A stretch of 64,000 bases of DNA from Actinomycetes bacterium. Lineage in GTDB: Bacteria; Actinomycetota; Actinomycetes; Actinomycetales; Dermatophilaceae. The translations under genes and the position numbers were made by a program. Below are positions 11,167 to 26,753 of this stretch, piece by piece. Position 1 is the first letter of the stretch; every line of letters begins with the position of its first letter. A model generated the notes under the pieces. It saw only the letters and a program-made list of their open reading frames with translations. It was not told where the DNA came from and ran no database searches. The stretch is taken from assembly GCA_029778715.1 (NCBI GenBank), contig JAKOPT010000019.1, positions 1 to 64,000 of the forward strand. The letters run 5' to 3'.

Positions 11167-12933
11167 ATGACAGACCAGGTGCTGACCCCGCACGCCCCCA
11201 CGCCGAGCGGGGCCAACCCCGGGGAAAAGGGGCTGCGCCCGGGCGCCCTGGGTCTGGTGAGCAGCGTTGTCGTCGGGATGGCGTCGACGGCGCCGGCCTA
11301 TTCGCTGGCCGCGAGTTTGGGCCTGGTCGTCGCGGCCGGAGCCGGGCTCAAGGCGCCGGCGATCATGCTGCTCGCGTTCGTCCCCATGTATTTCATCGCG
11401 GTCGCCTACAAGGAACTCAACGAGGCCGAACCCGACTGCGGGACGACCTTCACCTGGGCGACGCGCGCGTTCGGCCCGATCGTGGGCTGGATGGGCGGCT
11501 GGGGCATCATCGTCGCCGACGTCATCGTCATGGCCAACCTGGCCGCTATCGCCGGGCAGTATTCCTTCACGCTCGCCAACGAGCTCGGCTGGCACAACAC
11601 CTTGGACCAGTCGACGCTGTGGTCGACCGTCGCGGGGCTGATCTGGATCGCGGTCATGACGTACATCTGCTACCGCGGGATCGAGGTCTCGGCCCGGGTC
11701 CAGTACGGCCTGTTGGCGGTCGAAATGGTCACGCTCGTCATGTTCGCCGGGGTCGCCTTCTGGAAGGTGTATGCCGGTGAGGCACCCGAGGGGTCGGTCC
11801 ACCCGTCGCTGTCGTGGCTGTGGCCGAGCGGGATGTCGATGTCGGTCGTGTCCTCGTCCGTGTTGCTCGCGGTCTTCATCTACTGGGGCTGGGACACCGC
11901 GGTGTCGACGAACGAGGAAGCCGACGACCCGGGGCGCACCCCGGGCCAGGCCGCGGTCATCTCCACGCTGCTGCTCCTGCTGACCTTCGTCACGGTGACG
12001 ATGGCGGCGGTCGCGTTCGCCGGGACGGGCACCGAGGGGATCGGGCTGGGCAACCCGCAGAACTCCGACGAGGTGTTCCGGGCCATCGGTCCGACCCTCT
12101 ACGGCGACACGGTCCTCGGGCACATCGGGCTGGCGCTGCTTGCGATCACGATCTTGACGTCGGCGTCGGCGTCCACCCAGACCACGATCCTGCCGACGGC
12201 GCGCACGGCGCTGTCGATGGCGGCATACAAGGCGCTGCCGGAGCGGTTCGCCCGGATCCACCCCAAATACCTCACTCCCACCTGGTCGACGATCGGGATG
12301 GGGCTGGTCTCGGCGGCCTTCTTCCTGCTCATGACCTGGCTCAGCCCCCGGATCCTGCTCGCCCTCATCGGGGCCATCGGGTTGCAGATCGCGTTCTACT
12401 ACGGCCTCACCGGCATCGCCTGCGCGTGGTTCTACCGGCGGACCCTGACGGATTCGCTGCGGCACTTCGTCATGCGCGGGCTCATCCCGCTGGTCGGCGG
12501 CCTCTTCCTCTTCGTCACGTTCTTCTATGCCCTGCAGACCTATTGGGCCCCCGACAATCTGCAGGATGCCGACGGCAACGACATCACGATCGGCGGGGTC
12601 GGTGCGGTGGCGGTGGTCGGGGTCGTCTCGCTGCTCCTTGGGTTCGTCTTCCTCGCCATCCAGTGGTGGGCCTCACCGATGTTCTTCCGGGGGTTGACGC
12701 TGCCGCGGCGCAGCCACGGCGATATCGTCATGCAGGTCCCCCATCAGCCGGACGTCGATGGCCTGGTCCGGCTTCCCGATTCCACGGAGTACACCGTGAT
12801 TGCCCCCGACCTCTCGAATCTTCCCGAGGGTGTGACGGCGGTCGATCTCGCGACGGGGGTCGAGTTCTCGCGCGACCCGCGCGCCGAGGAATCCGGCGAC
12901 CAGGGGCGTGCCGAGGGCCGCGCCCATCCCTGA
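11167..12933 (+). CDS. APC family amino acid/polyamine permease
   Basis: 588 aa, about 12 TM; GLVSSVVVGMASTAPAYSLAASLG, TTFTWATRAFGPIVGWMGGWG. Confidence 0.85.
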   Translation: MTDQVLTPHAPTPSGANPGEKGLRPGALGLVSSVVVGMASTAPAYSLAASLGLVVAAGAGLKAPAIMLLAFVPMYFIAVAYKELNEAEPDCGTTFTWATRAFGPIVGWMGGWGIIVADVIVMANLAAIAGQYSFTLANELGWHNTLDQSTLWSTVAGLIWIAVMTYICYRGIEVSARVQYGLLAVEMVTLVMFAGVAFWKVYAGEAPEGSVHPSLSWLWPSGMSMSVVSSSVLLAVFIYWGWDTAVSTNEEADDPGRTPGQAAVISTLLLLLTFVTVTMAAVAFAGTGTEGIGLGNPQNSDEVFRAIGPTLYGDTVLGHIGLALLAITILTSASASTQTTILPTARTALSMAAYKALPERFARIHPKYLTPTWSTIGMGLVSAAFFLLMTWLSPRILLALIGAIGLQIAFYYGLTGIACAWFYRRTLTDSLRHFVMRGLIPLVGGLFLFVTFFYALQTYWAPDNLQDADGNDITIGGVGAVAVVGVVSLLLGFVFLAIQWWASPMFFRGLTLPRRSHGDIVMQVPHQPDVDGLVRLPDSTEYTVIAPDLSNLPEGVTAVDLATGVEFSRDPRAEESGDQGRAEGRAHP

Positions 12934-12949
12934 GGAGTTGAGTTCCAGC

Positions 12950-14227
12950 GTGCGCATTCTCATGATCGGAGCCGGGGGCGTCGGTGACGCCGCGGCCAAG
13001 ATCGCCGTATCCCGAGATTTCTTCGAGGTGTTCGTCGTCGCCGACTACGACGTGGAACGCGCCCGGCGCACGGTTGCCCACGCGGTCTCCCGGCGGCCGG
13101 GGGAGCAGCGGTTCCACGCCCTGGCCGTCGACGCCTCCGATGTCGACCAGGTGGCCGCGCTCATCCGGCTCACCGGCGCCACTCACGTCCTCAACGCCGT
13201 CGACCCGCGGTTCGTCATGCCGATCTTCGAGGGAGCCCTGGCCGCGGGCGCGAACTATCTCGACATGGCGATGAGCCTCTCGCGCCCCCACCCCGAGCGG
13301 CCGTATGCCGAGCCGGGGGTCAAACTCGGTGACCTCCAGTTCCATCGCGCCCCCGAATGGGAAGCCGCCGGGCGTCTGGCGTTGGTCGGGATCGGGGTCG
13401 AGCCTGGCCTCTCCGACGTCTTTGCCCGGTATGCCGCCGACCACCTGTTCTCCTCGATCGAGGAGTTGGGCACCCGGGACGGGGCCAACCTCGCCTTCAT
13501 CCGTCCCGACGGCACCGAGGGCTTCGCGCCGGGATTCTCGATGTGGACGATCATCGAGGAGTGCCTCAACCCGCCGGTCGTCTGGGAGAAGTCCCGGGCC
13601 GAGGCGGGCGGGGGAGACGTCGAGGCGGGCTTCTTCACCCTGCCGCCGTTCAGCGAGCCGGAGGTGTTCGACTTCCCCGAGGGGATCGGCCCGGTGGAGT
13701 GCGTCCACGTCGAGCACGAGGAGGTCCTCCTCATGCCGCGCTGGCTCGACGCGCAGCGGGTGACCTTCAAATACGGCCTTGGCGAGCAGATGATCTCGAT
13801 CCTCAAGGCCCTCAACACCCTGGGCCTGGACAGCACCGAGCCGATCCGGATCAAGGGCGTCGACATCGCCCCCCGCGACCTGGTGGCAGCCGCGCTGCCC
13901 GACCCGGCGACCATCGGTCCCCAGTTGCAGGGCAAGACCTGCGCCGGGGTGCTCGTCACCGGCACCGGCAAGGACGGGCAGCCGCGCCGCACGTACCTCT
14001 ACCACGTCGCCGACAACGAGGTGACGATGCGTGACTACGACGCTCAGTGCGTCGTCTGGCAGACCGCGATCAACCCGATCGTCGCCCTCGAACTGCTCGC
14101 CACCGGTGCCTGGAGCGGCGCCGGGGTGCTCGGTCCCGAGGCTTTCGACGCCGCACCCTTCCTGGAGTTGCTGGCCGCCGAACAACCCGCTGGATACGGA
14201 TCCCCGTGGGGGATGGAGGAAAAATGA
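12950..14227 (+). CDS. saccharopine dehydrogenase-family oxidoreductase
   Basis: GTG start (VRILMIGAGGVGDAAAKIA) Rossmann fold; ATHVLNAVDPRFVMPIFEGALAAGANYLDMAMS; within the GABA/putrescine operon. Confidence 0.8.
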   Translation: MRILMIGAGGVGDAAAKIAVSRDFFEVFVVADYDVERARRTVAHAVSRRPGEQRFHALAVDASDVDQVAALIRLTGATHVLNAVDPRFVMPIFEGALAAGANYLDMAMSLSRPHPERPYAEPGVKLGDLQFHRAPEWEAAGRLALVGIGVEPGLSDVFARYAADHLFSSIEELGTRDGANLAFIRPDGTEGFAPGFSMWTIIEECLNPPVVWEKSRAEAGGGDVEAGFFTLPPFSEPEVFDFPEGIGPVECVHVEHEEVLLMPRWLDAQRVTFKYGLGEQMISILKALNTLGLDSTEPIRIKGVDIAPRDLVAAALPDPATIGPQLQGKTCAGVLVTGTGKDGQPRRTYLYHVADNEVTMRDYDAQCVVWQTAINPIVALELLATGAWSGAGVLGPEAFDAAPFLELLAAEQPAGYGSPWGMEEK

Positions 14228-15573
14228 CCATCGAGCAAGCCCGCCGCCTCGTCACACCCGTCCCGGGGCCGAAGTCGCTGGAGTTGCAGGCCCGCAAGAC
14301 CGCGGCCGTGTCCGCGGGAGTCTCCACCGGGTTGCCGGCCTACATCGTCGCCGGTCAGGACGGCATACTCGTCGACGCCGACGGCAACCACCTCATCGAC
14401 TTCGGGTCGGGCATCGCGGTGACCAATGTCGGCAACGGCAACCCGCGGGTGATCGAGGCGGTCCAGGCCCAGATCGCCCAACTGACCCACACCTGCTTCA
14501 TGGTGACCCCCTACGAGGGGTACGTCGCGGTGGCCGAGAAGCTCAACGAACTCACCCCCGGTGGCCACGCTAAGCGCAGCGCCCTGTTCAACTCCGGGGC
14601 CGAGGCCGTCGAGAACGCGGTCAAGGTGGCGCGGCACTTCACCGGCCGGCAGGCGGTCGTCGTGTTCGATCACGCCTACCACGGGCGCACCAACCTCACG
14701 ATGGCGATGACGGCGAAGAACATGCCGTACAAGAACAAGTTCGGCCCGTTCGCCAGCGAGATGTATCGGGTGCCGATGGCCTACCCCTACCGGTGGCCCG
14801 GTGGCCCCAAGGCGTGTGAGAGCGACGCCTTCGACTACGTCACCTCCCAGATCCACGCCCAGGTCGGCGAGGAGAACACCGCCGCCGTCATCATCGAACC
14901 GATCCAGGGCGAGGGCGGGTTCATCGTGCCGCCCGCGGGCTTCCTGCGCGAACTGGCGGGCTGGTGCCAGGACAACGGCATCCTCTTCATCGCCGACGAG
15001 GTCCAGTCCGGGTTCTGCCGCACCGGTGACTGGTTCGCGTGCGACCACGAAGGGGTCGTCCCCGACCTCATCACGACGGCCAAGGGCATTGCCGGCGGTA
15101 TGCCGCTCGCGGCCTTGACCGGGCGCGCGGACATCATGGACGCGGTCCACCCCGGCGGCCTCGGCGGCACCTACGGCGGCAACCCGGTCGCGTGCGCGGC
15201 AGCGCTCGCGGCGATCGAGACGATGGCGGCGGACAACCTCGCGGCCCGGGCCCGGGCCATCGGCGAGAAACTCACGGCCGGCCTCAACGCGCTCGCCGAG
15301 ACCTACGAGCAGGTCGGCGAGGTCCGCGGGCGCGGGGCGATGATCGCCATGGAACTCGTCGAGGATCGCGAAACGAAGACCCCGGCCGCGGCCCTGACCG
15401 CCGCCATCAACAAGGCGTGCCACAACCGCGGCCTGGTCTCGTTGACCTGCGGCACCTACGGCAACGTCTTCCGATTCCTCCCGCCGCTGACGATCAGCGA
15501 CGCGCTCCTCGACGAAGGGCTGGCCCTACTCGGGGAGGCGTTCGCCGAGGCCGTCACCGCTGGAAAGGACTGA
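14224..15573 (+). CDS. gabT: 4-aminobutyrate aminotransferase
   Basis: ATG 14224; class III aminotransferase motifs, GIAVTNVGNGNPRVIEAVQAQ, FIADEVQSGFCRTG; adjacent to gabD. Confidence 0.88.
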   Translation: MTIEQARRLVTPVPGPKSLELQARKTAAVSAGVSTGLPAYIVAGQDGILVDADGNHLIDFGSGIAVTNVGNGNPRVIEAVQAQIAQLTHTCFMVTPYEGYVAVAEKLNELTPGGHAKRSALFNSGAEAVENAVKVARHFTGRQAVVVFDHAYHGRTNLTMAMTAKNMPYKNKFGPFASEMYRVPMAYPYRWPGGPKACESDAFDYVTSQIHAQVGEENTAAVIIEPIQGEGGFIVPPAGFLRELAGWCQDNGILFIADEVQSGFCRTGDWFACDHEGVVPDLITTAKGIAGGMPLAALTGRADIMDAVHPGGLGGTYGGNPVACAAALAAIETMAADNLAARARAIGEKLTAGLNALAETYEQVGEVRGRGAMIAMELVEDRETKTPAAALTAAINKACHNRGLVSLTCGTYGNVFRFLPPLTISDALLDEGLALLGEAFAEAVTAGKD

Positions 15574-15579
15574 TCCGGT

Positions 15580-17040
15580 ATGCCGTCCACTCAGGCTGAT
15601 GTTCTCGCGGGCGTCCCCAAGGGGTTGTTCATCGGCGGCGCCTGGCGCGCCGCCGAGTCCGGGACGACCTTCCCCGTCCATGACCCGGCGACCGGAGCGA
15701 TCCTGACCGAGGTCGCCGACGCCACCCCCGCCGACGGAATGGCGGCCCTCGATGCGGCCGCCGCTGCCCAGTCCACGTGGGCGGCCACCCCGCCGCGTGA
15801 CCGCGGCGAGATCCTGCGGCGGGCCTTCGAGGCGTTGACGGCCCGCGCCGAGGAGTTCGCGCTGCTCATGACCCTGGAGATGGGCAAACCGCTGGCCGAG
15901 GCCCGCGGCGAGGTCGCCTATGGGGCGGAGTTCTTCCGGTGGTTCGCCGAGGAAGCGGTGCGGATCTCGGGGCGTTGGTCGGTGGCGCCCAACGGGGCGA
16001 CCCGGCTGCTCACGATGAAGCAGCCGGTTGGCCCGGTCTATGCGATCACCCCGTGGAACTTCCCGCTGGCGATGGGTACCCGCAAGATCGGGCCCGCCAT
16101 CGCCGCCGGCTGCACGATGGTCGTCAAGCCGGCCCACGAGACCCCGTTGACGATGCTGGCGCTGGCCAAGTTGCTTGAGGATGTCGGCCTGCCCGCCGGG
16201 GTCGTCAACGTCGTGACGACGACGCACTCCTCGGCGCTGTCCGAGCCGCTCATCCGCGACCCGCGGCTGCGCAAACTCACCTTCACCGGGTCCACCGGGG
16301 TGGGGCAGCGGTTGGTCGAACAGTCGGCGCAGCAGTTGCTCCGGGTGTCCATGGAGTTGGGGGGCAACGCGCCGTTCATCGTCTGCGACGACGCCGACAT
16401 CGACAAGGCGGTCGACGGCGCGATGCTCGCCAAGATGCGCAACATCGGTGAGGCGTGTACGGCGGCCAACCGCTTCTACGTCCACTCCAGCGTCGCGGCG
16501 GAGTTCTCCGAGAAGTTCGCCGCCCGGATGGGCGGGTTGACCGTCGGCAACGGCACCGAGCAGGGGGTCGACGTCGGCCCGCTCATCACCGCCAAGGCCC
16601 GCGACGGGGTTCACGAGTTGGTCAGCGACGCCGTGGGCAAGGGCGCCACCGCCCTCACCGGCGGGTCGCCGCTGGCCGGCAGCGGCTTCTTCTACGCCCC
16701 GACCGTGCTCGCCGACGTGCCCGCCGATGCCCGCCTGCTCAAGGAGGAGATTTTCGGCCCGGTCGCCCCGGTCGTCAAATTCGAGACCGAGGCCGAAGCG
16801 ATCGCGATGGCCAACGACACCGAGTTCGGGCTCGCGGCATACCTGTTCACCAACGACCTCACCCGGGCGATCCGCATGGGTGAGGCCCTCGAATACGGCA
16901 TGGTCGGGCTCAACACCGGCATCGTGTCCAACCCGGCGGCGCCCTTCGGCGGGATCAAGGCGTCCGGGTTCGGCCGCGAGGGCGGCCCCGAGGGCATCGA
17001 GGAGTACCTCGAGACGAAGTACCTCGGCATCCAGATGTAA
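15580..17040 (+). CDS. gabD: succinate-semialdehyde dehydrogenase
   Basis: 486 aa ALDH; MELGGNAPFIVCDDADID, GEACTAANRFYVH; adjacent to gabT. Confidence 0.88.
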   Translation: MPSTQADVLAGVPKGLFIGGAWRAAESGTTFPVHDPATGAILTEVADATPADGMAALDAAAAAQSTWAATPPRDRGEILRRAFEALTARAEEFALLMTLEMGKPLAEARGEVAYGAEFFRWFAEEAVRISGRWSVAPNGATRLLTMKQPVGPVYAITPWNFPLAMGTRKIGPAIAAGCTMVVKPAHETPLTMLALAKLLEDVGLPAGVVNVVTTTHSSALSEPLIRDPRLRKLTFTGSTGVGQRLVEQSAQQLLRVSMELGGNAPFIVCDDADIDKAVDGAMLAKMRNIGEACTAANRFYVHSSVAAEFSEKFAARMGGLTVGNGTEQGVDVGPLITAKARDGVHELVSDAVGKGATALTGGSPLAGSGFFYAPTVLADVPADARLLKEEIFGPVAPVVKFETEAEAIAMANDTEFGLAAYLFTNDLTRAIRMGEALEYGMVGLNTGIVSNPAAPFGGIKASGFGREGGPEGIEEYLETKYLGIQM

Positions 17041-17056
17041 CACCCCTCCCCACCCC

Positions 17057-17106
17057 CGATTCGAGGTAAAAACGCCGCGGAATCCGCGCGTTTTTACCTC
17101 GAATCG
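17057..17106. terminator. perfect 19-bp inverted repeat (12-bp spacer), terminator-like hairpin
   Basis: cgattcgaggtaaaaacgc - cgcggaatccgc - gcgtttttacctcgaatcg. Confidence 0.7.
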
Positions 17107-17127
17107 CTCGACAAGGAGTCCCTTCTC

Positions 17128-18486
17128 GTGACGATCGACCGCACCCACCTGGCCCGCCTGCTCAAGCGTGAGCATGCGCGGTTCGACGCAACCCACCCCG
17201 GGTCGCGCGCCGCGCATGACCGGGCGACCCACCTGTTCGGCAAGGTGCCGATGACGTGGATGATGAAGCACGCCATGGGCTTCCCGCTCTACCTGCACAG
17301 CGCGCGCGGGGCGGTCGTCACCGACGTCGACGGCATCGAGTATGTCGACTTCGCCCTCGGGGACACCGCGGCGATGGCCGGGCACTCCCCGGAGGCGACG
17401 GTGCGGGCGGTGCAGGAGCAGTTCGCCGAGAAGGGCGGGGCGACGGCGATGCTGCCGACCGAGGATGCCGAGTGGGTGGGCGCGGAGTTGACGCGCCGGT
17501 TCACGGCGACCCGGTGGAGTTTCGCCCTCACCGCCACCGACGCCAACCGGTGGGCGATCCGGTTGGCGCGCGCGGTCACCGGACGCCCCAAGGTGCTCTT
17601 CAACTCGTACTGCTACCACGGCACCGTCGACGAATCCCTCATCGTCGCGACGCCGCAGGGGTCGGCGAGCCGGCCCGGCAACGTCGGCGCCCCGTGTGAT
17701 GTGACGTTGACCAGTCGGGTCGCCGAGTTCAACGACCTCGACGCCCTCGACCGCGAGTTGTCCCACGGCGACGTCGCCATGGTCGTCATGGAGCCGGCGC
17801 TGACGAACATCGGGATCGTGCTGCCCGAGCCGGGCTATCTCGAGGGGGTGCGCGCCCTGACCCGCAAGCACGGCGTCGCGTTGCTCCTCGACGAGACGCA
17901 CACGATCTCGGCGGGTCCGGGTGGGGCCATCGGTGCGTGGGGCCTCGAGCCGGACCTCGTCGTCATCGGCAAGTCGATCGGCGGCGGCATCCCGGCCGCG
18001 GCATACGGCGTGGGGCCGGAGTTCGCCGACACCGTCCTCTCCCGCAGCGACCTCGACCTGTCCGACATGGGCGGGGTCGGCGGCACGATGGCGGGCAACG
18101 CGCTGTCGATCGCCGCGACCCGGGCCACCTTGGAGCACGTCCTCACCGACGAGGCGTTCGCGGGCATGATCGCGCTCTCGGACCGGTTCGCCGCCGGCGT
18201 CCAGCGGGTTTTCGACACGTATGCCGCGCCGTGGTCGGTGACGCAGTTGGGTGCCCGCTCGGAGTACCGGTTCACCCCGACCCCGCCGCGCAACGGCACG
18301 CAAGCGCACGAGGCGACCGACCTCGAACTGGACGACTACTTCCACATCTACCTGGCCAACCGCGGCGTGCTCCTCACCCCCTTCCACAACATGGCGCTGA
18401 TGAGCCCGGCAACCACGCAGGATCAGGTCGACGAGCACCTCGTCCACTTCGAGGCCGCGGTCGCCGAACTCCTCACGGGCAATTGA
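17128..18486 (+). CDS. class III aminotransferase (glutamate-1-semialdehyde 2,1-aminomutase-like)
   Basis: 452 aa; YVDFALGDTAAMAGHSPEATV, LLLDETHTISAGPGG, VVIGKSIGGGIPAAAYG. Confidence 0.8.
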   Translation: MTIDRTHLARLLKREHARFDATHPGSRAAHDRATHLFGKVPMTWMMKHAMGFPLYLHSARGAVVTDVDGIEYVDFALGDTAAMAGHSPEATVRAVQEQFAEKGGATAMLPTEDAEWVGAELTRRFTATRWSFALTATDANRWAIRLARAVTGRPKVLFNSYCYHGTVDESLIVATPQGSASRPGNVGAPCDVTLTSRVAEFNDLDALDRELSHGDVAMVVMEPALTNIGIVLPEPGYLEGVRALTRKHGVALLLDETHTISAGPGGAIGAWGLEPDLVVIGKSIGGGIPAAAYGVGPEFADTVLSRSDLDLSDMGGVGGTMAGNALSIAATRATLEHVLTDEAFAGMIALSDRFAAGVQRVFDTYAAPWSVTQLGARSEYRFTPTPPRNGTQAHEATDLELDDYFHIYLANRGVLLTPFHNMALMSPATTQDQVDEHLVHFEAAVAELLTGN

Positions 18487-18489
18487 CGC

Positions 18490-18522
18490 CGGGACAAAGT
18501 CACCCAAATGCTCGTTTTGTCC
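18490..18522. terminator. hairpin cgggacaaa...tttgtcccg after the aminotransferase
   Basis: 9-bp inverted repeat immediately 3' of the CDS. Confidence 0.5.
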
Positions 18523-18600
18523 CGCCCTCTCGCCGCCGCGCCGCAAGCGACCATGGCCGCTCCTGCCTAACCGAAGGCAAGGATGGCTACACCTGTGGCC

Positions 18601-18882
18601 ATGAATGACGGCGCGACCATGGCCCTGCAGGACGTGAAGAACCACCTCTGCGAGGTGGTCGACCAGGTCGAGCGTGAACAGGCCCGCGTTGTCGTCACGC
18701 GTCACGGCAAGCCGGCCGCGGTGCTCGTCAGTGCCGATGATCCGGCCTCGTTGGAGGAGACTCTCGAGGTGATGAGTCGGTCCTCATTCATGGCCCAACT
18801 GCGAGACAGCCTCGCGGAGATCGCGGCCAGCGACGCCGAGGTCTTGAGCAAGGATGAGTTGCTTCAGACCCTGCTCGCGTGA
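18601..18882 (+). CDS. type II toxin-antitoxin antitoxin, Phd/YefM family
   Basis: MALQDVKNHLCEVVDQVEREQARVVVTRHGKPAAVLVSADD, typical Phd/YefM; followed by a RelE-like remnant. Confidence 0.85.
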   Translation: MNDGATMALQDVKNHLCEVVDQVEREQARVVVTRHGKPAAVLVSADDPASLEETLEVMSRSSFMAQLRDSLAEIAASDAEVLSKDELLQTLLA

Positions 18883-19141
18883 TGGCCGAGCCCTACGAGA
18901 TCGCCTGGACCCGACGGCTCGGCGCGCCCTGCGGTAGTTACCCGAGAAGGTGGCGGCAGCGGTGGTCGATTTCGTCTACGGGAGCCTCGCGGCTAACCCA
19001 CGACGGGTCGGAAAGGCGCTGCGTGTCGACGTCGACGGTGTGCATAGCGCCCGCCGAGGCGCCTACCGCATCCTCTACCGAATCGATGAGCGCGTGACGA
19101 TCACCGTGATCGAACACCGCGCGGACGCCTACCGCACCTGA
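18882..19141 (+). pseudogene. RelE/ParE-family toxin, degenerate (frameshift plus in-frame TAG)
   Basis: N-terminal MAEPYEIAWTRR in one frame; ...VAAAVVDFVYGSLAANPRRVGKALRVDVDGVHSARRGAYRILYRIDERVTITVIEHRADAYRT in another; the intervening frame reads TARRALR*LPEKV. Confidence 0.75.
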
Positions 19142-19496
19142 CACGCATCGAATGGGGTGACGGCGCCACAGCCTCGGTGGGGTCCGACCGACCTCATCGA
19201 GACATATCCGTAACGGTCGGAACTCCCAACACGCCTTCCTCCTGCTTGCGATCAGCGAGGGAACCGGCTCATCACACGCAGAGTGTTAGCCTCAACAGGA
19301 CTCTGATTGGGGCAATCTATTTGAGTTGCTCAGAAACTCCACGACATCTGGCAGGTGGCTCGGAAGGCCGCGACCGCGTCCATATCCGCGTCGTGGACCA
19401 ACAACTGCGGCGTGTTCGCGTAATTCTGTATGTCGACATTGGGCGTGCCCATGGCACTGGTTCCAACAGCGTATCCTGAAAAGTACGAACTGTATT

Positions 19497-19565
19497 TCAG
19501 GGATGAAACTTGATAGAGCCGGAATCGGACCCTGTTGTCACCGCCCGCTTGGAACCCGCCGTTCC
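19497..19565 (-). pseudogene. 3' fragment of the IS-interrupted small secreted-protein gene
   Basis: In-frame continuation TAGSKRAVTTGSDSGSIKFHP* when the IS elements are removed. Confidence 0.65.
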
Positions 19566-19640
19566 CCTGTGCGTCAGGCTGAGGTGAGACACCACTTCTG
19601 AGTTCCTTCCCTCTGCACGGGGCGAGAAGCGAGACACCTG

Positions 19641-20048
19641 ATGACTATGACGTTGGCTGATGCTGCCCGGATCGATGATGGGGTGGTGAGCCCGAGAGCA
19701 GACCGTCCGAAGCGACGCACGTTCACCGCGGAGTACAAGGCCGCGATCCTGGCCGAGCACGACGCCGCTGAGCGTGGCGAGCGGGGCGCGATCTTGCGCC
19801 GGGAGGGCCTGTACTCCTCCCACATCGTTGAGTGGCGCAAGGCCGCAGAGGCGGGCGCGAGTACCGCGCTGGGCCCCAGGAGCCGCGATCGTAGGGACCG
19901 AGAGATCGAGCAGTTGCGAGCCCGCGCGGAGAAGGCCGAGACCGAGTTGGCCAAGACCAGGGCCGCGTTGGACCTAGTGGGAAAAGCACACGCGCTCTTG
20001 GAGACGTTCTCCGAGAGCGCGGGCACGCCGAAGTGGTCGCAGCGGTGA
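19641..20048 (+). CDS. IS3 family transposase OrfA (HTH)
   Basis: RRTFTAEYKAAILAEHDAA...REGLYSSHIVEWRKA; overlaps orfB. Confidence 0.85.
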   Translation: MTMTLADAARIDDGVVSPRADRPKRRTFTAEYKAAILAEHDAAERGERGAILRREGLYSSHIVEWRKAAEAGASTALGPRSRDRRDREIEQLRARAEKAETELAKTRAALDLVGKAHALLETFSESAGTPKWSQR

Positions 20049-21046
20049 TCAACCCGGCCGTCGACGAGCTTGCCGAGCACACGGGCGTGAAGCAGGCGTG
20101 CGAGTTGCTGGGCCGACCCAGGGGCAGTCACTACCGCGCCAAACAACCGCGCATGCACGGGCCTGCACCACAGCGACCGACGCCGCCGAACGCGCTCACC
20201 CAGGTCGAGCAGACCCAGGTGTTGGCGGTGCTGACCAGCGAGCGGTTCTGCGACAAGTCGGTGGCCCAAACCTGGGCCACGCTGCTGGATGAGGGCACCT
20301 ACCTGTGCTCGATGTCCACGATGCACCGGCTTCTGCGCGCTCACGGCGCCGCAGGCGAACGACGCAGGCAGGCCACCCACCCGGCGAAGAAGAAGCCCGA
20401 ACTGCTGGCCACCGCGCCTGGGCAAGTCTGGTCGTGGGACATCACCAAACTCCGCGGTCCCGGACGCGGGATCTGGTTCCAACTCTACGTCGTGCTCGAC
20501 ATCTTCTCCCGCTACGTCCTCGCGTGGACCGTCCAGGCCAGTGAGGACTCCGAGATCGCCAAGAACATGCTGGAAGAGGCGATGGGTGTGCACGGCATCC
20601 CCGAAGCCGTGCACGCCGACCGGGGCACCTCGATGACCTCCAAACCCGTCGCGCAACTGCTGCTCGACCTCGGCGTGGACCGCAGCCATTCCAGGCCCCG
20701 GGTAAGCAACGACAACCCGTTCAGCGAGGCCGCGTTCAAAACCCTGAAGTACGCGCCCGCCTTCCCCGACGCGTTCGGTTCCCTGGCCGACGCCCGGGCG
20801 TACTGCGCAGAGTTCTTCAACTACTACAACCACCAGCACCGTCACTGCGGGATCGGACTGCATACGCCCGCCTCGGTACACCACGGCACCGCGACCCAGA
20901 TCCGGGCCCAGCGTCAGGCCACCCTCGACGCCGCGCACGCCGCTCACCCCGACCGTTTCGGCAACCGCCGACCCCAGGCGCCGAAACTGCCCAAGGCTGC
21001 CTGGATCAACCAGCCCTCACCGGAGGCCCTCATACAGACCGCGTAA
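20033..21046 (+). CDS. IS3 family transposase OrfB (DDE integrase core)
   Basis: PGQVWSWDITKLRGP, HADRGTSMTSKPVAQLL, SRPRVSNDNPFSEAAFKTLKY. Confidence 0.9.
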   Translation: MVAAVINPAVDELAEHTGVKQACELLGRPRGSHYRAKQPRMHGPAPQRPTPPNALTQVEQTQVLAVLTSERFCDKSVAQTWATLLDEGTYLCSMSTMHRLLRAHGAAGERRRQATHPAKKKPELLATAPGQVWSWDITKLRGPGRGIWFQLYVVLDIFSRYVLAWTVQASEDSEIAKNMLEEAMGVHGIPEAVHADRGTSMTSKPVAQLLLDLGVDRSHSRPRVSNDNPFSEAAFKTLKYAPAFPDAFGSLADARAYCAEFFNYYNHQHRHCGIGLHTPASVHHGTATQIRAQRQATLDAAHAAHPDRFGNRRPQAPKLPKAAWINQPSPEALIQTA

Positions 21047-21074
21047 CGAGACGTGTCTCAGACTGCTTGACACA

Positions 21075-21132
21075 TTCCGTTCGCCCATTCCACCATCCCT
21101 GTCCAGCGACGGGTTGTGTTGGTGGGGTAACT
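21075..21132 (-). pseudogene. middle fragment of the IS-interrupted small secreted-protein gene
   Basis: Reads PTNTTRRWTGMVEWANG in frame with the flanking fragments. Confidence 0.65.
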
Positions 21133-22621
21133 GGCTCTTGGTACTTGGCCGGGCAGCCTGGGTCCGTGTCGTGACGTGAGTGAACCCGTGGTCTCGGTGA
21201 ATCATGGCTGTTGTCAAGGCAGTTCATGATCCAGGAGGCCACGGGCTGTGTTCCAGGGTACGCGTGTGTTCGTGTCGCGGGAAGCGACGGCGTTGTTGGG
21301 GATCGAAGGGCTGGCGGTGGTCAGCGTGGTGGATGTCGACGGGGTCCGCCAGGTGGATGTGGTCACCGACGATCCGACCGCTGCGGCCTGCCCGGACTGT
21401 GGCGTCATTTCCGAGGCGGTGAAGGGTCAGGTGGTCAGCTCACCGCGGGACCTGCCCTACGGGCCGGCATCGATCCGGTTGGTGTGGCACAAGCGGCGGT
21501 GGCGGTGCCGAGAGCCACTATGTGAACGGTCGTCGTTCACCGAGTCGATCCCGGCGATCCCGGCCCGGTCGCGGCTGACCAGCCGGCTACGGGCCGAGTG
21601 TGGTGAGGGGATCGCCGAGCGGTTCACGTGCGTGGCCGCGGGCGCCGTCCACTACGGGCTGTCCTGGCGGACCGCGCACGCCGCCTACGTCCGCCACGTC
21701 GCTGCGACACTGGCGGCACCGTTGCCGCCGGTCACCGTGCTCGGGATCGATGAGATCCGTCGCGGGAAGATCCGCTGGGTCAAGGATCCGGACACTGGTC
21801 GGTGGGTCAAGGCCACCGACCGGTGGTTGACTGGGCTGATCGACGCCGCCGGGGACGGCGGGCTACTCGCACACGTCGAGGGCCGTGCCGCCCCAGCGAT
21901 CGTGGAATGGGTTGAGGCCCAATCAGATTCATGGCGTACCGGGATCCGGTACGTATGCATGGACCTATCCGCCTCGTACGCCAAAGCGATCCGCCTGGCC
22001 CTGCCGGGCGCGGTGCTGGTCGCTGACCGGTTCCACCTGGTCCGCCTAGCCAACGACATGCTCACTCAGGTCCGCCAGCAAGCCACCCGGACCGGCCGCG
22101 GCCGACGAGGCCGCCGGCGTGACCCGGAATGGGCCAACCGTCGGCGACTGCTCACCGCCCACGAACGGCTCACCGAGACCGGGTTCGCCACGATGTGGAA
22201 CTCCCTCATGGATCAAGGGGACCTCGGTGTCGATGTGCTGTACGCCTACACCGTCAAAGAACTCCTACGCGACCTGCTGGCCCTGGCCCCCACCCCCGGC
22301 ACCTCGGTACCCAACCACAGCGAGATCTCCCACCGGCTGTGGAAGTTCAACAGCCAGGCTGCCGCCTGCGACATCCCCGCCGTGCACCGCCTCGCCGCGA
22401 CCATCCAGAACTGGTGGCCGGCCGTCGAAGCCGCCCTCACCACCGGCTACAGCAACGCCCGCAGCGAGGGCTACAACCGGCTGGCCAAACACCAAGGACG
22501 CAACGCCTTCGGCTTCCGCAACACCACCAACCAGACCCGCCGCATACGCTGGGCCTGCACCCGCCAACACCGGCGAGCCGCAGCCAACATCAGCGAGGTG
22601 CCCGCTCAAGTATGAAGAGCC
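21133..22621 (+). mobile_element. ISL3-family insertion sequence with 8-bp target duplication
   Basis: Terminal repeats GGCTCTTggTACTTGgcCGGG / GGCTCTTcaTACTTGagCGGG; flanked by gggtaact at 21125-21132 and 22622-22629. Confidence 0.92.
21248..22615 (+). CDS. ISL3 family transposase
   Basis: 455 aa; N-terminal zinc-finger-like CPDC...CREPLC; DDE domain GIDEIRRGKIRWV, VLVADRFHLVRL, SNARSEGYNRLAK. Confidence 0.92.
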   Translation: MFQGTRVFVSREATALLGIEGLAVVSVVDVDGVRQVDVVTDDPTAAACPDCGVISEAVKGQVVSSPRDLPYGPASIRLVWHKRRWRCREPLCERSSFTESIPAIPARSRLTSRLRAECGEGIAERFTCVAAGAVHYGLSWRTAHAAYVRHVAATLAAPLPPVTVLGIDEIRRGKIRWVKDPDTGRWVKATDRWLTGLIDAAGDGGLLAHVEGRAAPAIVEWVEAQSDSWRTGIRYVCMDLSASYAKAIRLALPGAVLVADRFHLVRLANDMLTQVRQQATRTGRGRRGRRRDPEWANRRRLLTAHERLTETGFATMWNSLMDQGDLGVDVLYAYTVKELLRDLLALAPTPGTSVPNHSEISHRLWKFNSQAAACDIPAVHRLAATIQNWWPAVEAALTTGYSNARSEGYNRLAKHQGRNAFGFRNTTNQTRRIRWACTRQHRRAAANISEVPAQV

Positions 22622-22785
22622 GGGTAACTGTAGTAGTTGACTCCTCCCGCTGAGTATGAAAAGCCGCCGCCACTGCCAGTGCAAGACTTGGAACTCGTTG
22701 CGGCCGCCATGGCGACCCCGGTCCCAGTCGTAACCGCTAGTGCAGCAGCGAATACCAAAGCGGCTGCCCGTTTGCCCATGGTCAT
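22622..22785 (-). pseudogene. 5' fragment of a small secreted protein (signal peptide), interrupted by two IS elements
   Basis: RBS cgggaggt upstream of ATG 22785; MTMGKRAAALVFAAALAVTTGTGVAMAAATSSKSCTGSGGGFSYSAGGVNYYSYP. Confidence 0.7.
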
Positions 22786-22912
22786 GAGAGACCTCCCGCC
22801 GAGTCAAACCCTACGTGCAAGTAGTGCAAGAGTGCTGGCTCCGTACCGGTTGCGATAAGGTCTCCGGCAGATTCGTCTCAGATCTTTCGGTCTCAACCTC
22901 CTAGGCAAGTAG

Positions 22913-24009
22913 GTGATCTGTTCGATGAGGACCTTTGGGCAGATCCGTGTCCAATGGTTGGCGGCTATCTTCATGGTCATCGCCGCCGCGTCTGCGGTGC
23001 TCTATTGGGCGTCGAGTCGTGAAGATGCCACGACGAGCCGGGTGCACTTCGACGAGACCTGGATCGCCGCGACACCGCGGCTCTATGCCGCCGACGACTC
23101 CGGGGCAGTGACCACGACGCAGGGGGGATTGCGGGGGATCAGAAGGGACGGGGCGCTTGCCTGGGTCATGAGCGGGAGCGAACTCGGCCAACCACCCCGA
23201 TCTGTGCAGGAGGCTGCCCGCGCCTGGTGACCAGCGGGAACTTCGAGGATTTCTTCACCGCTGACCCGGTGCCACGGCTGTGGGGCGACGCGGTCATCCC
23301 GGACGCCTGGCGGCAGCAGACCGCCGGCATGAACGTCATCCTGGCCGCGGATGACACGGCGGCCCTGAGGGTCGTCTCCGATGCGCAGGGGTCCACCTGG
23401 GCGGAATCGTGGCATCACGACACGGTCACTCGCTATCCCTTTCCCGTTGGAGCGCCAGGATGGGGGATGGAGACCAGCGATGGTCGCGCGGGAGTGCTCA
23501 CCTCGATGGGTGCCACGGCCGATGGCTCGATCCCGTTGACTTTCGCCTGGCGCACAGCCGAGGGTTGGCACCTCGAAGCCACTCACGCCAGGCGCGCCTG
23601 TTTGTCCTCCGACGGCAGTCGTCGCGTGGCCGATGACCACCTGGTCGTCGACGGAAATGCCGTGCCGTTGCCACCGAATCTAGGCCCTCAGTGTCAATTC
23701 GCCCGCACCGGAATCCTCTTCGGGGACCGCGGTCAACCGGCGGGGACCTATACATTCGTCGGCTTCGATGGATCGGTGCGCTGGACGCGACCGTCGCCAC
23801 CGTATTCGTGGTGGACGACAAGTGAGATCCGCGACACGATTGCCTATTCGACGGTGACGAAGGAGGCGGCATACGTGGAGGAGTTCGATGCCAACGGACA
23901 CCGTCTGCGCACTATTCAGGGAGCAGCCTCCTCGCTATACACCCCTACGGGACTGCTGGTAACGGTCGACCGAAACGCCGTCGTGACTTGGCAACCCGCG
24001 GTCCCGTGA
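22913..24009 (+). pseudogene. membrane-anchored extracellular protein of unknown function, split by a frameshift near 23.2 kb
   Basis: ORF 22913-23230 has one N-terminal TM; ORF 23227-24009 continues in another frame, open upstream as ...TPICAGGCPRLVTSGNFEDFF. Confidence 0.6.
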
Positions 24010-24740
24010 GCGCCGGAATGCTCGTCGTCCAAGACCTCGTGGTCCGACGAAGCGAGCACTTCACACTCGGGCCCACGAGCCTCACGCTCGGCGGCGGCGA
24101 GATTCTCGGGCTGGTCGGGGCCAACGGGTCGGGGAAGACCACCTTGATGCGTGCCGTCCTCTCGGCGCTGCGGCCGACCTCCGGCTCGATGACCTGGATG
24201 GGGCATGCCGTCCGCGCTGGTACCCCGACCCCGGGCGTGGTGGGTCTGATCGAGGAACCCAAACTCCTTCCAGGCCTGGATGGCATCCGTAATCTCCACG
24301 TCGCCTTTCCGCAGCGCGCCCTAGACGACGCCACGTGTCTTGACGTCCTGACCCGCGTCGGGCTGGAGGAAGCGGCGATCGCGCGGGTACCAGCACGACG
24401 CTACAGCCAGGGGATGCGCCAACGTCTGGGGCTGGCCCGGGTGCTGCTCGCCGATGCTGGGCTGCTCGTGTTGGACGAGCCCACCAACGGGCTTGACCCC
24501 TTGGGTGTGCGGTGGCTGCGCACGCTCTTGACCGAGCAGCGTGAGGCTGGCGTTGCCATCATCGTGTCGAGCCACATGCTCTATGAGATTCACCAGGTCG
24601 CCACACGCTTTCTCATGCTCGATCATGGCCGCTCCCTGGGCGAGGGACCCATCGAGGCCCTTGGTGAAGCGCGCACCCTGGAGGACGTCTACTTCTCGAT
24701 TGTCGACACGCACATCTCGGACCAAGGACCCCGCTCGTGA
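24006..24740 (+). CDS. ABC transporter ATP-binding protein
   Basis: Walker A GANGSGKTT, signature YSQGMRQRLGLARVLL, Walker B LLVLDEPTNGLD. Confidence 0.9.
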   Translation: MSAGMLVVQDLVVRRSEHFTLGPTSLTLGGGEILGLVGANGSGKTTLMRAVLSALRPTSGSMTWMGHAVRAGTPTPGVVGLIEEPKLLPGLDGIRNLHVAFPQRALDDATCLDVLTRVGLEEAAIARVPARRYSQGMRQRLGLARVLLADAGLLVLDEPTNGLDPLGVRWLRTLLTEQREAGVAIIVSSHMLYEIHQVATRFLMLDHGRSLGEGPIEALGEARTLEDVYFSIVDTHISDQGPRS

Positions 24741-25918
24741 AGGCGTCGAGTGGGGCATCCCTGGGCTGGATTCTCATCAAAGATCGAGTGGTCTGGGGGG
24801 CAGGAGCCCTCGTGGTTCTTGCCGCGGTGGGCTTGGGACTGACAAGCCACCCGGATGTCGGCCGGGCCCTCGAACGAGCCGCCGCGGTGGCCCTTTTCGT
24901 GGTAACGCTTGGGGCGGGACTGGCCACCGCCTCGGTGTGGGGCACCATCGCCGATGCCGATCTGGAAGGCACGATCCATGACTGCGGTTCGTCGCCGAGG
25001 TGGGCGCGCGTGCGGATTTGGCTCATGCTCCAGGCCGGAGCAGGTGCCGCCTCAGTCCTGCTGCTCGCAGTCGCGGCGGGGGCAGCCCTGCTTGCCCCTC
25101 AGCCCGACGAGGCCGGATCGGTGGGCAGCGGTCGCACCACGCTGTGGTTGTTGTTAGCCCTGCCGTCGACCGTCGCGGTCGCCACGGTTGTCTCATGGGG
25201 TCGCACGCGCACCCAGGCCCTGGTGCGCACGATGGCGATCGTCGTCATCCCCCTGGTGGCCTTCTTCGGACCCCGCGCGTCGACTCGATCGCTCCTCGTC
25301 GCGTTGTCACCAACAACCGCTCCTACGGTGCTCGTCGCTCCCTCTCAGTACCCGGTCGGCGCCGTGGTCATCGCGAGCGTGTCCACAACGCTCGCGTGGA
25401 TCGGCGTGGTCGTCGTCCTCATGGGTCCCTCGCGGGCATCTACGCAGGTCACGTCACTGTCTGCCCGGGCATCGTGGCGGGGCCGATTGTGGACACGACC
25501 CCGTATGCCGCGTTGGCCAGTGCTGGTGTGCGTCCTCGTCTTGCTTCTCGGGTCGTTCCTTCCCGCGCTCGGGGAGCAGATTCCCTACCAGCGACGTTAC
25601 GCCGCATCGGTCCAGCAAGCGCGGCACGCTGGCCCCGATGATGCGCTGCGGACCTACCTCACGGCATACGGTCAAGGGCGGCTCGAGACCGCGGCCCTGT
25701 GGGCAGCCCACGGGGAGGTTCACGCCCCGCTGGCGGAAATACCGACGCCGTCCGTGCCCGTCGTGGCCAATGCGCCGATGACCGTGGTGCGCTCGGAGAG
25801 CATCACAGACGCGACGGTCGCGATCCAGGCCCGGGGCAAGGAGTTCTATGGGTGCCTCGTGCGCAACGCACAACAGTGGCTGGTGACGCGGGTGTCGACG
25901 AAGGAGTCGTGTGATTGA
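24737..25918 (+). CDS. ABC transporter-associated multi-TM membrane protein
   Basis: 4-bp overlap with the ATPase; several hydrophobic segments. Confidence 0.7.
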   Translation: MKASSGASLGWILIKDRVVWGAGALVVLAAVGLGLTSHPDVGRALERAAAVALFVVTLGAGLATASVWGTIADADLEGTIHDCGSSPRWARVRIWLMLQAGAGAASVLLLAVAAGAALLAPQPDEAGSVGSGRTTLWLLLALPSTVAVATVVSWGRTRTQALVRTMAIVVIPLVAFFGPRASTRSLLVALSPTTAPTVLVAPSQYPVGAVVIASVSTTLAWIGVVVVLMGPSRASTQVTSLSARASWRGRLWTRPRMPRWPVLVCVLVLLLGSFLPALGEQIPYQRRYAASVQQARHAGPDDALRTYLTAYGQGRLETAALWAAHGEVHAPLAEIPTPSVPVVANAPMTVVRSESITDATVAIQARGKEFYGCLVRNAQQWLVTRVSTKESCD

Positions 25919-26708
25919 GTCGACGCGGGTGGCTCGTGCCGAGATCCGGGCGCGACTGGGTCGACCCGCGCTCACCGTTGGCTTTCTGCTGGCCAGCGCG
26001 GTCGCTCTGCTCGAAACCTTGACGCCGGTCTATGTCAATGGGGATCCAGTCAGCCGGGGCTGGTGGGGCGCGGTCTACGGAGGGTCCACGGGGCTGGCCG
26101 GTGCCCTCCTTGTGACGTGCGCTGTGCTTATCGGGTTGCTGGGCGGCGATCTGGATCGCGGATTCCTAACCGAGCGTGTGGCTCTGGGCGCCGATCCGCG
26201 TGCCGTGGTCCTCGGGCAGGGCTTGGCCGCGATGGCGATGGGCTGTGCGACCTGGGGTTTGGCCGTGGTCGTTACGGCAGGGGCGGCGTTGGCCGATCTG
26301 GGAGGCCGACTCCTGATCGGGCGCCCGGCGGCGGTACCCGCGCCCCCGGCTGCCGTGCTTGCGTCCGCGGCAGTCGCTCCGGCGGTGCTGGTGGTGGTTG
26401 CCGCCCTTCTCTGGTCGCTGGTACTGGCGAGCGGCTCTGGTCGACGTGCCCTGGTTTGGTTGGCAGGAAGCGTCGGCACCTTCCTCGTCCTGTTGGTTGC
26501 GGGCGGGCCCTGGTGGTCGCGCCTCCTCGTTTTCCACCCGCTCGCCGGAGCATGGCGGGGGTTGAGTGCGCTCCCCTGGGGCGCCACCTTGCCCGGGGCA
26601 GTACACGAGCCACCCTTGCCCTACGGGGTGAGCGCGGGGGTGTGGACGCTGGTCCTCGCGGGTGCGGCATACCGACAGTGGCGACGCGGCTGGATCGGCT
26701 CCGCCTAG
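25911..26708 (+). CDS. ABC-2-type-like membrane protein
   Basis: Overlaps the preceding ORF; about 6 hydrophobic segments. Confidence 0.65.
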   Translation: MIESTRVARAEIRARLGRPALTVGFLLASAVALLETLTPVYVNGDPVSRGWWGAVYGGSTGLAGALLVTCAVLIGLLGGDLDRGFLTERVALGADPRAVVLGQGLAAMAMGCATWGLAVVVTAGAALADLGGRLLIGRPAAVPAPPAAVLASAAVAPAVLVVVAALLWSLVLASGSGRRALVWLAGSVGTFLVLLVAGGPWWSRLLVFHPLAGAWRGLSALPWGATLPGAVHEPPLPYGVSAGVWTLVLAGAAYRQWRRGWIGSA

Positions 26709-26753
26709 CAAGGTCCCGACCAGCCGAGAGCCCCGCGGGCTAGGGTGGGCGCT

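What the first reader, a model, noticed from the sequence alone, without database searches (positions are those of the whole stretch)
19497..22785. One small secreted-peptide gene interrupted twice, by an IS3-family and an ISL3-family element
On the - strand a ribosome-binding site and signal peptide start at 22785. Removing the ISL3 element with one 8-bp copy of gggtaact, and the IS3 element with one ttcc copy, restores an in-frame ~92-aa ORF: MTMGKRAAALVFAAALAVTTGTGVAMAAATSSKSCTGSGGGFSYSAGGVNYYSYPTNTTRRWTGMVEWANGTAGSKRAVTTGSDSGSIKFHP*. The mature region is Gly/Ser/Tyr-rich and resembles a small secreted bacteriocin or signalling peptide. Two independent hits in one ~280-bp gene suggest selection for its loss, or an IS hotspot.
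Basis: partly seen in the sequence, partly recalled or inferred. Interest (0 to 1): 0.72.

Follow-up and report, generated by a model that had tools for sequence, protein, structure and literature searches.

The report
Twice-interrupted secreted-protein gene in island
An actinobacterium carries a small imported gene cluster (a secreted protein of unknown family plus its own transporter) whose secreted-protein gene has been broken by two separate jumping elements; an intact copy of the cluster sits elsewhere in Knoellia remsis, so this looks like an unrecognised, possibly bacteriocin-like module caught decaying.

Summary
The ISL3 element (21133-22621) has the claimed 8-bp duplication. Homologous copies place the IS3 element at 19565-21079 with a 3-bp TTC duplication, not 'ttcc'. 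With that junction the frame runs on to 19330, giving a 146-aa secreted protein instead of 92 aa. It matches no Pfam or NCBIfam family, lactococcin 972 included. The cassette is an imported accessory island. In the window it separates an aminotransferase gene from a dehydratase gene that abut in two congeners; in K. remsis it separates carA from carB, which abut or nearly abut in eight congeners. The island also carries a frameshifted propeller gene and a ParE-toxin remnant, while the ABC and permease genes stay open. Most likely a bacteriocin-like secreted protein with ABC-type self-protection, now non-producing; that function is inferred, not shown. Selection for loss is not demonstrated.

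The parts
22630..22785 (-). 5' part of the secreted-protein gene: start codon, signal peptide, KSC motif
   Evidence: Translation; aligned with the Knoellia homolog
22622..22629 (.). 8-bp target duplication of the ISL3 element (second copy at 21125-21132)
   Evidence: Exact GGGTAACT at both ends
21133..22621 (+). ISL3-family insertion sequence, transposase ORF 21248-22615, GGCTCTT terminal repeats
   Evidence: Pfam DDE_Tnp_ISL3 E 7e-43, Zn_ribbon_ISL3; ends; single copy in the assembly
21083..21132 (-). Middle part of the secreted-protein gene between the two insertions (50 bp, including one ISL3 duplication copy)
19565..21079 (+). IS3-family insertion sequence; orfA 19641-20048, orfB 20033-21046
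   Evidence: Pfam HTH_Tnp_1 (below cut-off) and rve; ends defined by homologous copies in family genomes
19562..19564 (.). 3-bp TTC target duplication of the IS3 element (second copy at 21080-21082)
   Evidence: Same IS ends with 3-bp duplications at other sites
19330..19564 (-). 3' part of the secreted-protein gene, ending ...ADMDAVAAFRATCQMSWSF-stop; reader had this in the wrong frame
   Evidence: matches Knoellia homolog E 3e-9
22913..24009 (+). Membrane-anchored propeller-like protein gene, frameshifted around 23190-23227 into two ORFs (22913-23230 and 23227-24009)
   Evidence: Both halves match one intact 362-aa Knoellia gene; propeller-like 3Di matches from a low-confidence model
24018..24740 (+). 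ABC transporter ATPase
   Evidence: Pfam ABC_tran E 2e-25; best NCBIfam lantibiotic-protection ABC, below cut-off; 51% to Knoellia
24737..25918 (+). Permease 1 (about 6-7 hydrophobic segments, C-terminal soluble domain)
   Evidence: Hydropathy; 32-35% to Knoellia
25911..26708 (+). Permease 2 (about 6 hydrophobic segments, NGDPVSxGWWG motif)
   Evidence: Hydropathy; 38% to Knoellia
18583..18882 (+). Phd/YefM-type antitoxin gene in the same island
   Evidence: Pfam PhdYeFM_antitox E 2e-17
18882..19141 (+). Broken ParE/RelE-type toxin gene remnant
   Evidence: Downstream 67 aa match ParE_toxin E 2e-5; frame broken upstream
18487..26744 (.). Accessory island between the class-III aminotransferase gene and the MaoC-like dehydratase gene
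   Evidence: The two flanking genes abut in both congeners searched

Best explanation
The locus is an imported five-gene cassette: one small secreted, probably mostly beta protein with two conserved cysteines, a membrane-anchored propeller-like protein, an ABC ATPase and two permeases. In this genome two independent transposition events (ISL3 and IS3) split the secreted-protein gene, and a frameshift splits the propeller gene, so the secreted product is no longer made, while the ABC ATPase and permease genes remain open. Shown: anatomy, conserved association, island status, interruptions. Inferred: the secreted protein acts outside the cell, most likely as a bacteriocin-like protein against close relatives, with the ABC transporter as self-protection; the window strain would then be a former producer that may retain immunity.
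For: Intact homolog immediately upstream of the same four genes in the same order in K. remsis. Signal peptide in both. Cassettes inserted at unrelated sites: between aminotransferase and dehydratase genes here, between carA and carB in K. remsis. The ATPase of both cassettes has the lantibiotic-protection ABC model as its best NCBIfam hit, by about ten orders of magnitude, though well below cut-off. Rare, patchy distribution. Self-protection by an ABC transporter next to a secreted bacteriocin has precedent in Lcn972 (PMC4055356), and immunity-only strains in pneumococcal blp cassettes (PMC4517551).
Against: No family or solved-structure match for the secreted protein; no assay; ATPase score below cut-off and neither permease matches any family. 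The propeller gene is also broken here, so the 'immunity kept' picture is incomplete. Only one intact cassette was found, so conservation rests on two loci. The peptide gene is divergent from the operon here and co-directional in K. remsis.
Confidence: 0.45

Rival explanations
1. The secreted protein is not antagonistic: it is a binding or signalling protein working with the propeller protein and the ABC transporter, for example ligand capture or envelope sensing.
For: A secreted beta protein plus an anchored propeller-like protein plus ABC and two permeases could form an envelope complex; the best 3Di match of the weak propeller model is mycobacterial Rv3035, also solved in complex with FecB. 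No toxin homology.
Against: Patchy island distribution and the best-hit ATPase family favour a competition module; the structural model is low confidence (pLDDT 50).
Confidence: 0.35
2. Neutral decay of a useless imported island: the interruptions carry no selective meaning and the whole cassette is on its way out. This concerns the history in the window genome and can be true together with either functional reading.
For: Three of its genes are broken (secreted protein, propeller protein, ParE remnant). Two hits in one gene have about an 8% chance given one hit. An already broken gene is a free target.
Against: The ABC ATPase and both permease genes remain open over 2.7 kb.
Confidence: 0.5
3. 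One reading: a 92-aa Gly/Ser/Tyr-rich peptide, possibly lactococcin-972 type.
For: The N-terminal 71 residues are right.
Against: IS3 ends from homologous copies give another frame. The homolog matches that other frame through ADMDAV-RA-C. No Lactococcin_972 hit; the genome-wide search was also empty but had no positive control.
Confidence: 0.02

Closest known systems
Lactococcin 972 cluster (structural gene plus orf2-orf3 ABC-type immunity)
   Same: Small secreted protein encoded next to an ABC transporter thought to give self-immunity (PMC4055356)
   Different: No sequence match to PF09683; larger protein with two Cys; two separate permeases and a propeller-like protein in the cassette (comparison of the membrane proteins is from general knowledge, not tested)
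LanFEG lantibiotic self-protection transporters
   Same: One ATPase and two permeases; ATPase's best NCBIfam model is TIGR03740
   Different: Score 143-146 bits against a cut-off of 310; permeases match no Pfam or NCBIfam family; no lantibiotic modification genes in the cassette
Pneumococcal blp 'cheater' (immunity-only) cassettes
   Same: Production arm broken, protection arm possibly kept
   Different: There frameshifts in the transporter gene blpA; here IS insertions in the secreted-protein gene; immunity not shown here
IS3-family and ISL3-family insertion sequences
   Same: Gene content, terminal repeats, 3-bp and 8-bp target duplications
   Different: Nothing unusual found

Membership tests
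Lactococcin 972 family (PF09683) | Match of the structural protein to the family profile | tested here: not met
   No hit at E up to 1 (window reading) or 0.5 (intact homolog); own-genome search also empty but without a positive control
Lactococcin 972 family (PF09683) | Lipid II binding / cell-wall synthesis inhibition by the secreted protein | not testable with these tools
   Needs a bench assay
LanFEG self-protection ABC transporters | ATPase over the TIGR03740 cut-off (309.75 bits) | tested here: not met
   142.6 bits here, 146.4 in Knoellia, though the best-ranked model in both
LanFEG self-protection ABC transporters | Two permeases of LanE/LanG type | tested here: inconclusive
   Two permeases present by hydropathy but no family match
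IS3 family | HTH orfA plus rve (DDE) orfB, short inverted repeats, 3-4 bp duplication | tested here: met
   orfA match to HTH_Tnp_1 is slightly below its cut-off
ISL3 family | DDE_Tnp_ISL3 transposase, GGCTCTT-type ends, 8-bp duplication | tested here: met

The most novel reading that the evidence does not exclude
A previously undescribed family of secreted antibacterial proteins in the Knoellia-containing family of actinobacteria, carried on a five-gene cassette (secreted protein, anchored propeller protein, ABC ATPase, two permeases) that has landed at different chromosomal sites, with the window strain being a natural immunity-only derivative made by IS insertions.
Probability: 0.25. Interest if true: 0.6.

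Novelty: new variant of a known kind. Interest (0 to 1): 0.42.

Why it matters
It turns a speculative 92-aa peptide into a defined, testable module: an intact 145-aa secreted protein and four partner genes in a named strain (K. remsis ATCC BAA-1496), none of them in a curated family except the ABC ATPase. If antibacterial, it would be a new bacteriocin family with a matched protection system and a natural example of how producers lose the weapon. It also shows that IS ends should be set from homologous copies before an interrupted gene is read through.

Tried and rejected
Lactococcin 972 as family: no hit. Four weak phylum hits (L007-L010, E 0.003-0.008) and two weak order hits (L032, L033, E about 5e-4 to 9e-4) rest largely on the N-terminal half; several have stops inside or lie in long open frames. 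They were not inspected individually and are not counted as homologs. Plasmid, viral-contig and pattern scans of genome contigs (empty; one search gave only K. remsis) found no further copies. AlphaFold of the intact secreted protein (pLDDT 45, all beta) and of the propeller protein (pLDDT 50) are too weak for fold claims; the propeller reading rests on many low-TM propeller matches. Defence-system models hit only the generic ATPase. Promoter scan of the divergent region: nothing.

Full report
Observation. On the - strand a start codon at 22785 opens a signal peptide. The frame is broken at 22629 by an ISL3 element (21133-22621) bounded by GGGTAACT on both sides, with GGCTCTT terminal repeats and an intact DDE_Tnp_ISL3 transposase. 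Fifty bases of gene separate it from a second element of IS3 type (HTH_Tnp_1-like orfA, rve orfB). Each element is single-copy in the 3.08-Mb draft genome; draft assemblies can collapse repeats.

Correcting the IS3 ends. Copies of the same element in family genomes (76-87% identity) run from CCCTGTGCGTCAGG to CTTGACA..TTCCG, and several are flanked by matching triplets (GGG/GGG, GCG/GCG, CTC/CTC, GCC/GCC, AAG/AAG). This puts the element at 19565-21079 with duplicated TTC. With that junction the gene is read in another frame from about codon 72 on and does not stop at 19497 but at 19330-19332: 146 residues rather than 92. The chance that a Markov-random sequence of that length has no stop is about 3%, so the frame alone is weak evidence; the homolog below is the strong evidence.

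Intact homolog. No match to the peptide above weak level was found in 98 relatives or 398 phylum genomes. The neighbouring permease gave one good match among 150 family genomes, on a contig of the same length as Knoellia remsis ATCC BAA-1496 NZ_PVTI01000005.1, which a genome-contig scan also returned. Directly upstream of its operon lies an intact 145-aa secreted protein that matches the corrected reading over residues 2-142 at 34% identity, E 6e-17; the best of 200 shuffles gave 0.011. The part after the IS3 site matches on its own at E 3e-9.

The module. In K. remsis the order is secreted protein, 362-aa protein with one N-terminal transmembrane helix, ABC ATPase, 386-aa permease, 263-aa permease. 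In the window the same four partner genes follow on the + strand (41, 51, 32-35 and 38% identity), with the secreted-protein gene divergent. Only the ATPase has a known family. Its best NCBIfam model in both species is the lantibiotic-protection ABC ATPase, far below its cut-off. A low-confidence model of the 362-aa protein (pLDDT 50) gives mostly beta-propeller matches with low TM-scores.

An imported island. In both other genomes of the window's genus the aminotransferase gene is followed within a few bases by the dehydratase gene; in the window 8.26 kb lie between them. In K. remsis the cassette lies between carA and carB, which are adjacent or nearly so (within about 120 bases) in eight other genomes of its genus and adjacent in the window's genus. 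The cassette has thus arrived at unrelated sites. The G+C of the secreted-protein gene (58%) is below the window mean (68%).

Decay. Besides the twice-interrupted gene, the first operon gene is split by a frameshift around 23190-23227 (both halves match one intact Knoellia gene), and a ParE-type toxin gene beside a Phd/YefM-type antitoxin is a remnant. The frameshift could be a sequencing error. The ATPase and permease genes are open.

Function and mechanism. Most likely (inferred) the intact cassette makes a secreted bacteriocin-like protein and a dedicated transporter for self-protection, working like the Lcn972 cluster (PMC4055356), although it is not a member of that family. Loss of the production arm while the transporter stays open recalls 'cheater' cassettes in pneumococci (PMC4517551). 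A binding or signalling role is the main rival. Selection for loss is not shown: given one insertion, the chance that a second falls in the same gene is about 8%, and within about 50 bp about 2%, of the 5.2-kb non-IS island; once broken, a gene is a neutral target.

Verdict.

Noticed in passing
window 18583-19141: Phd/YefM-type antitoxin gene followed by a broken ParE/RelE-type toxin remnant at the left edge of the island.
   Followed up: partly
window 23190-23227: Frameshift splitting the propeller-like operon gene into two ORFs; may be real decay or a sequencing error.
   Followed up: partly
L026 5196-9501 (Knoellia remsis NZ_PVTI01000005.1): Five-gene cassette inserted between carA and carB, which are adjacent or nearly so in eight other genomes of the genus.
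   Followed up: yes
window 12908-18486: Conserved metabolic cluster (saccharopine-dehydrogenase-like protein, aminotransferase, aldehyde dehydrogenase, class-III aminotransferase) shared with both congeners; the island sits at its end.
   Followed up: partly
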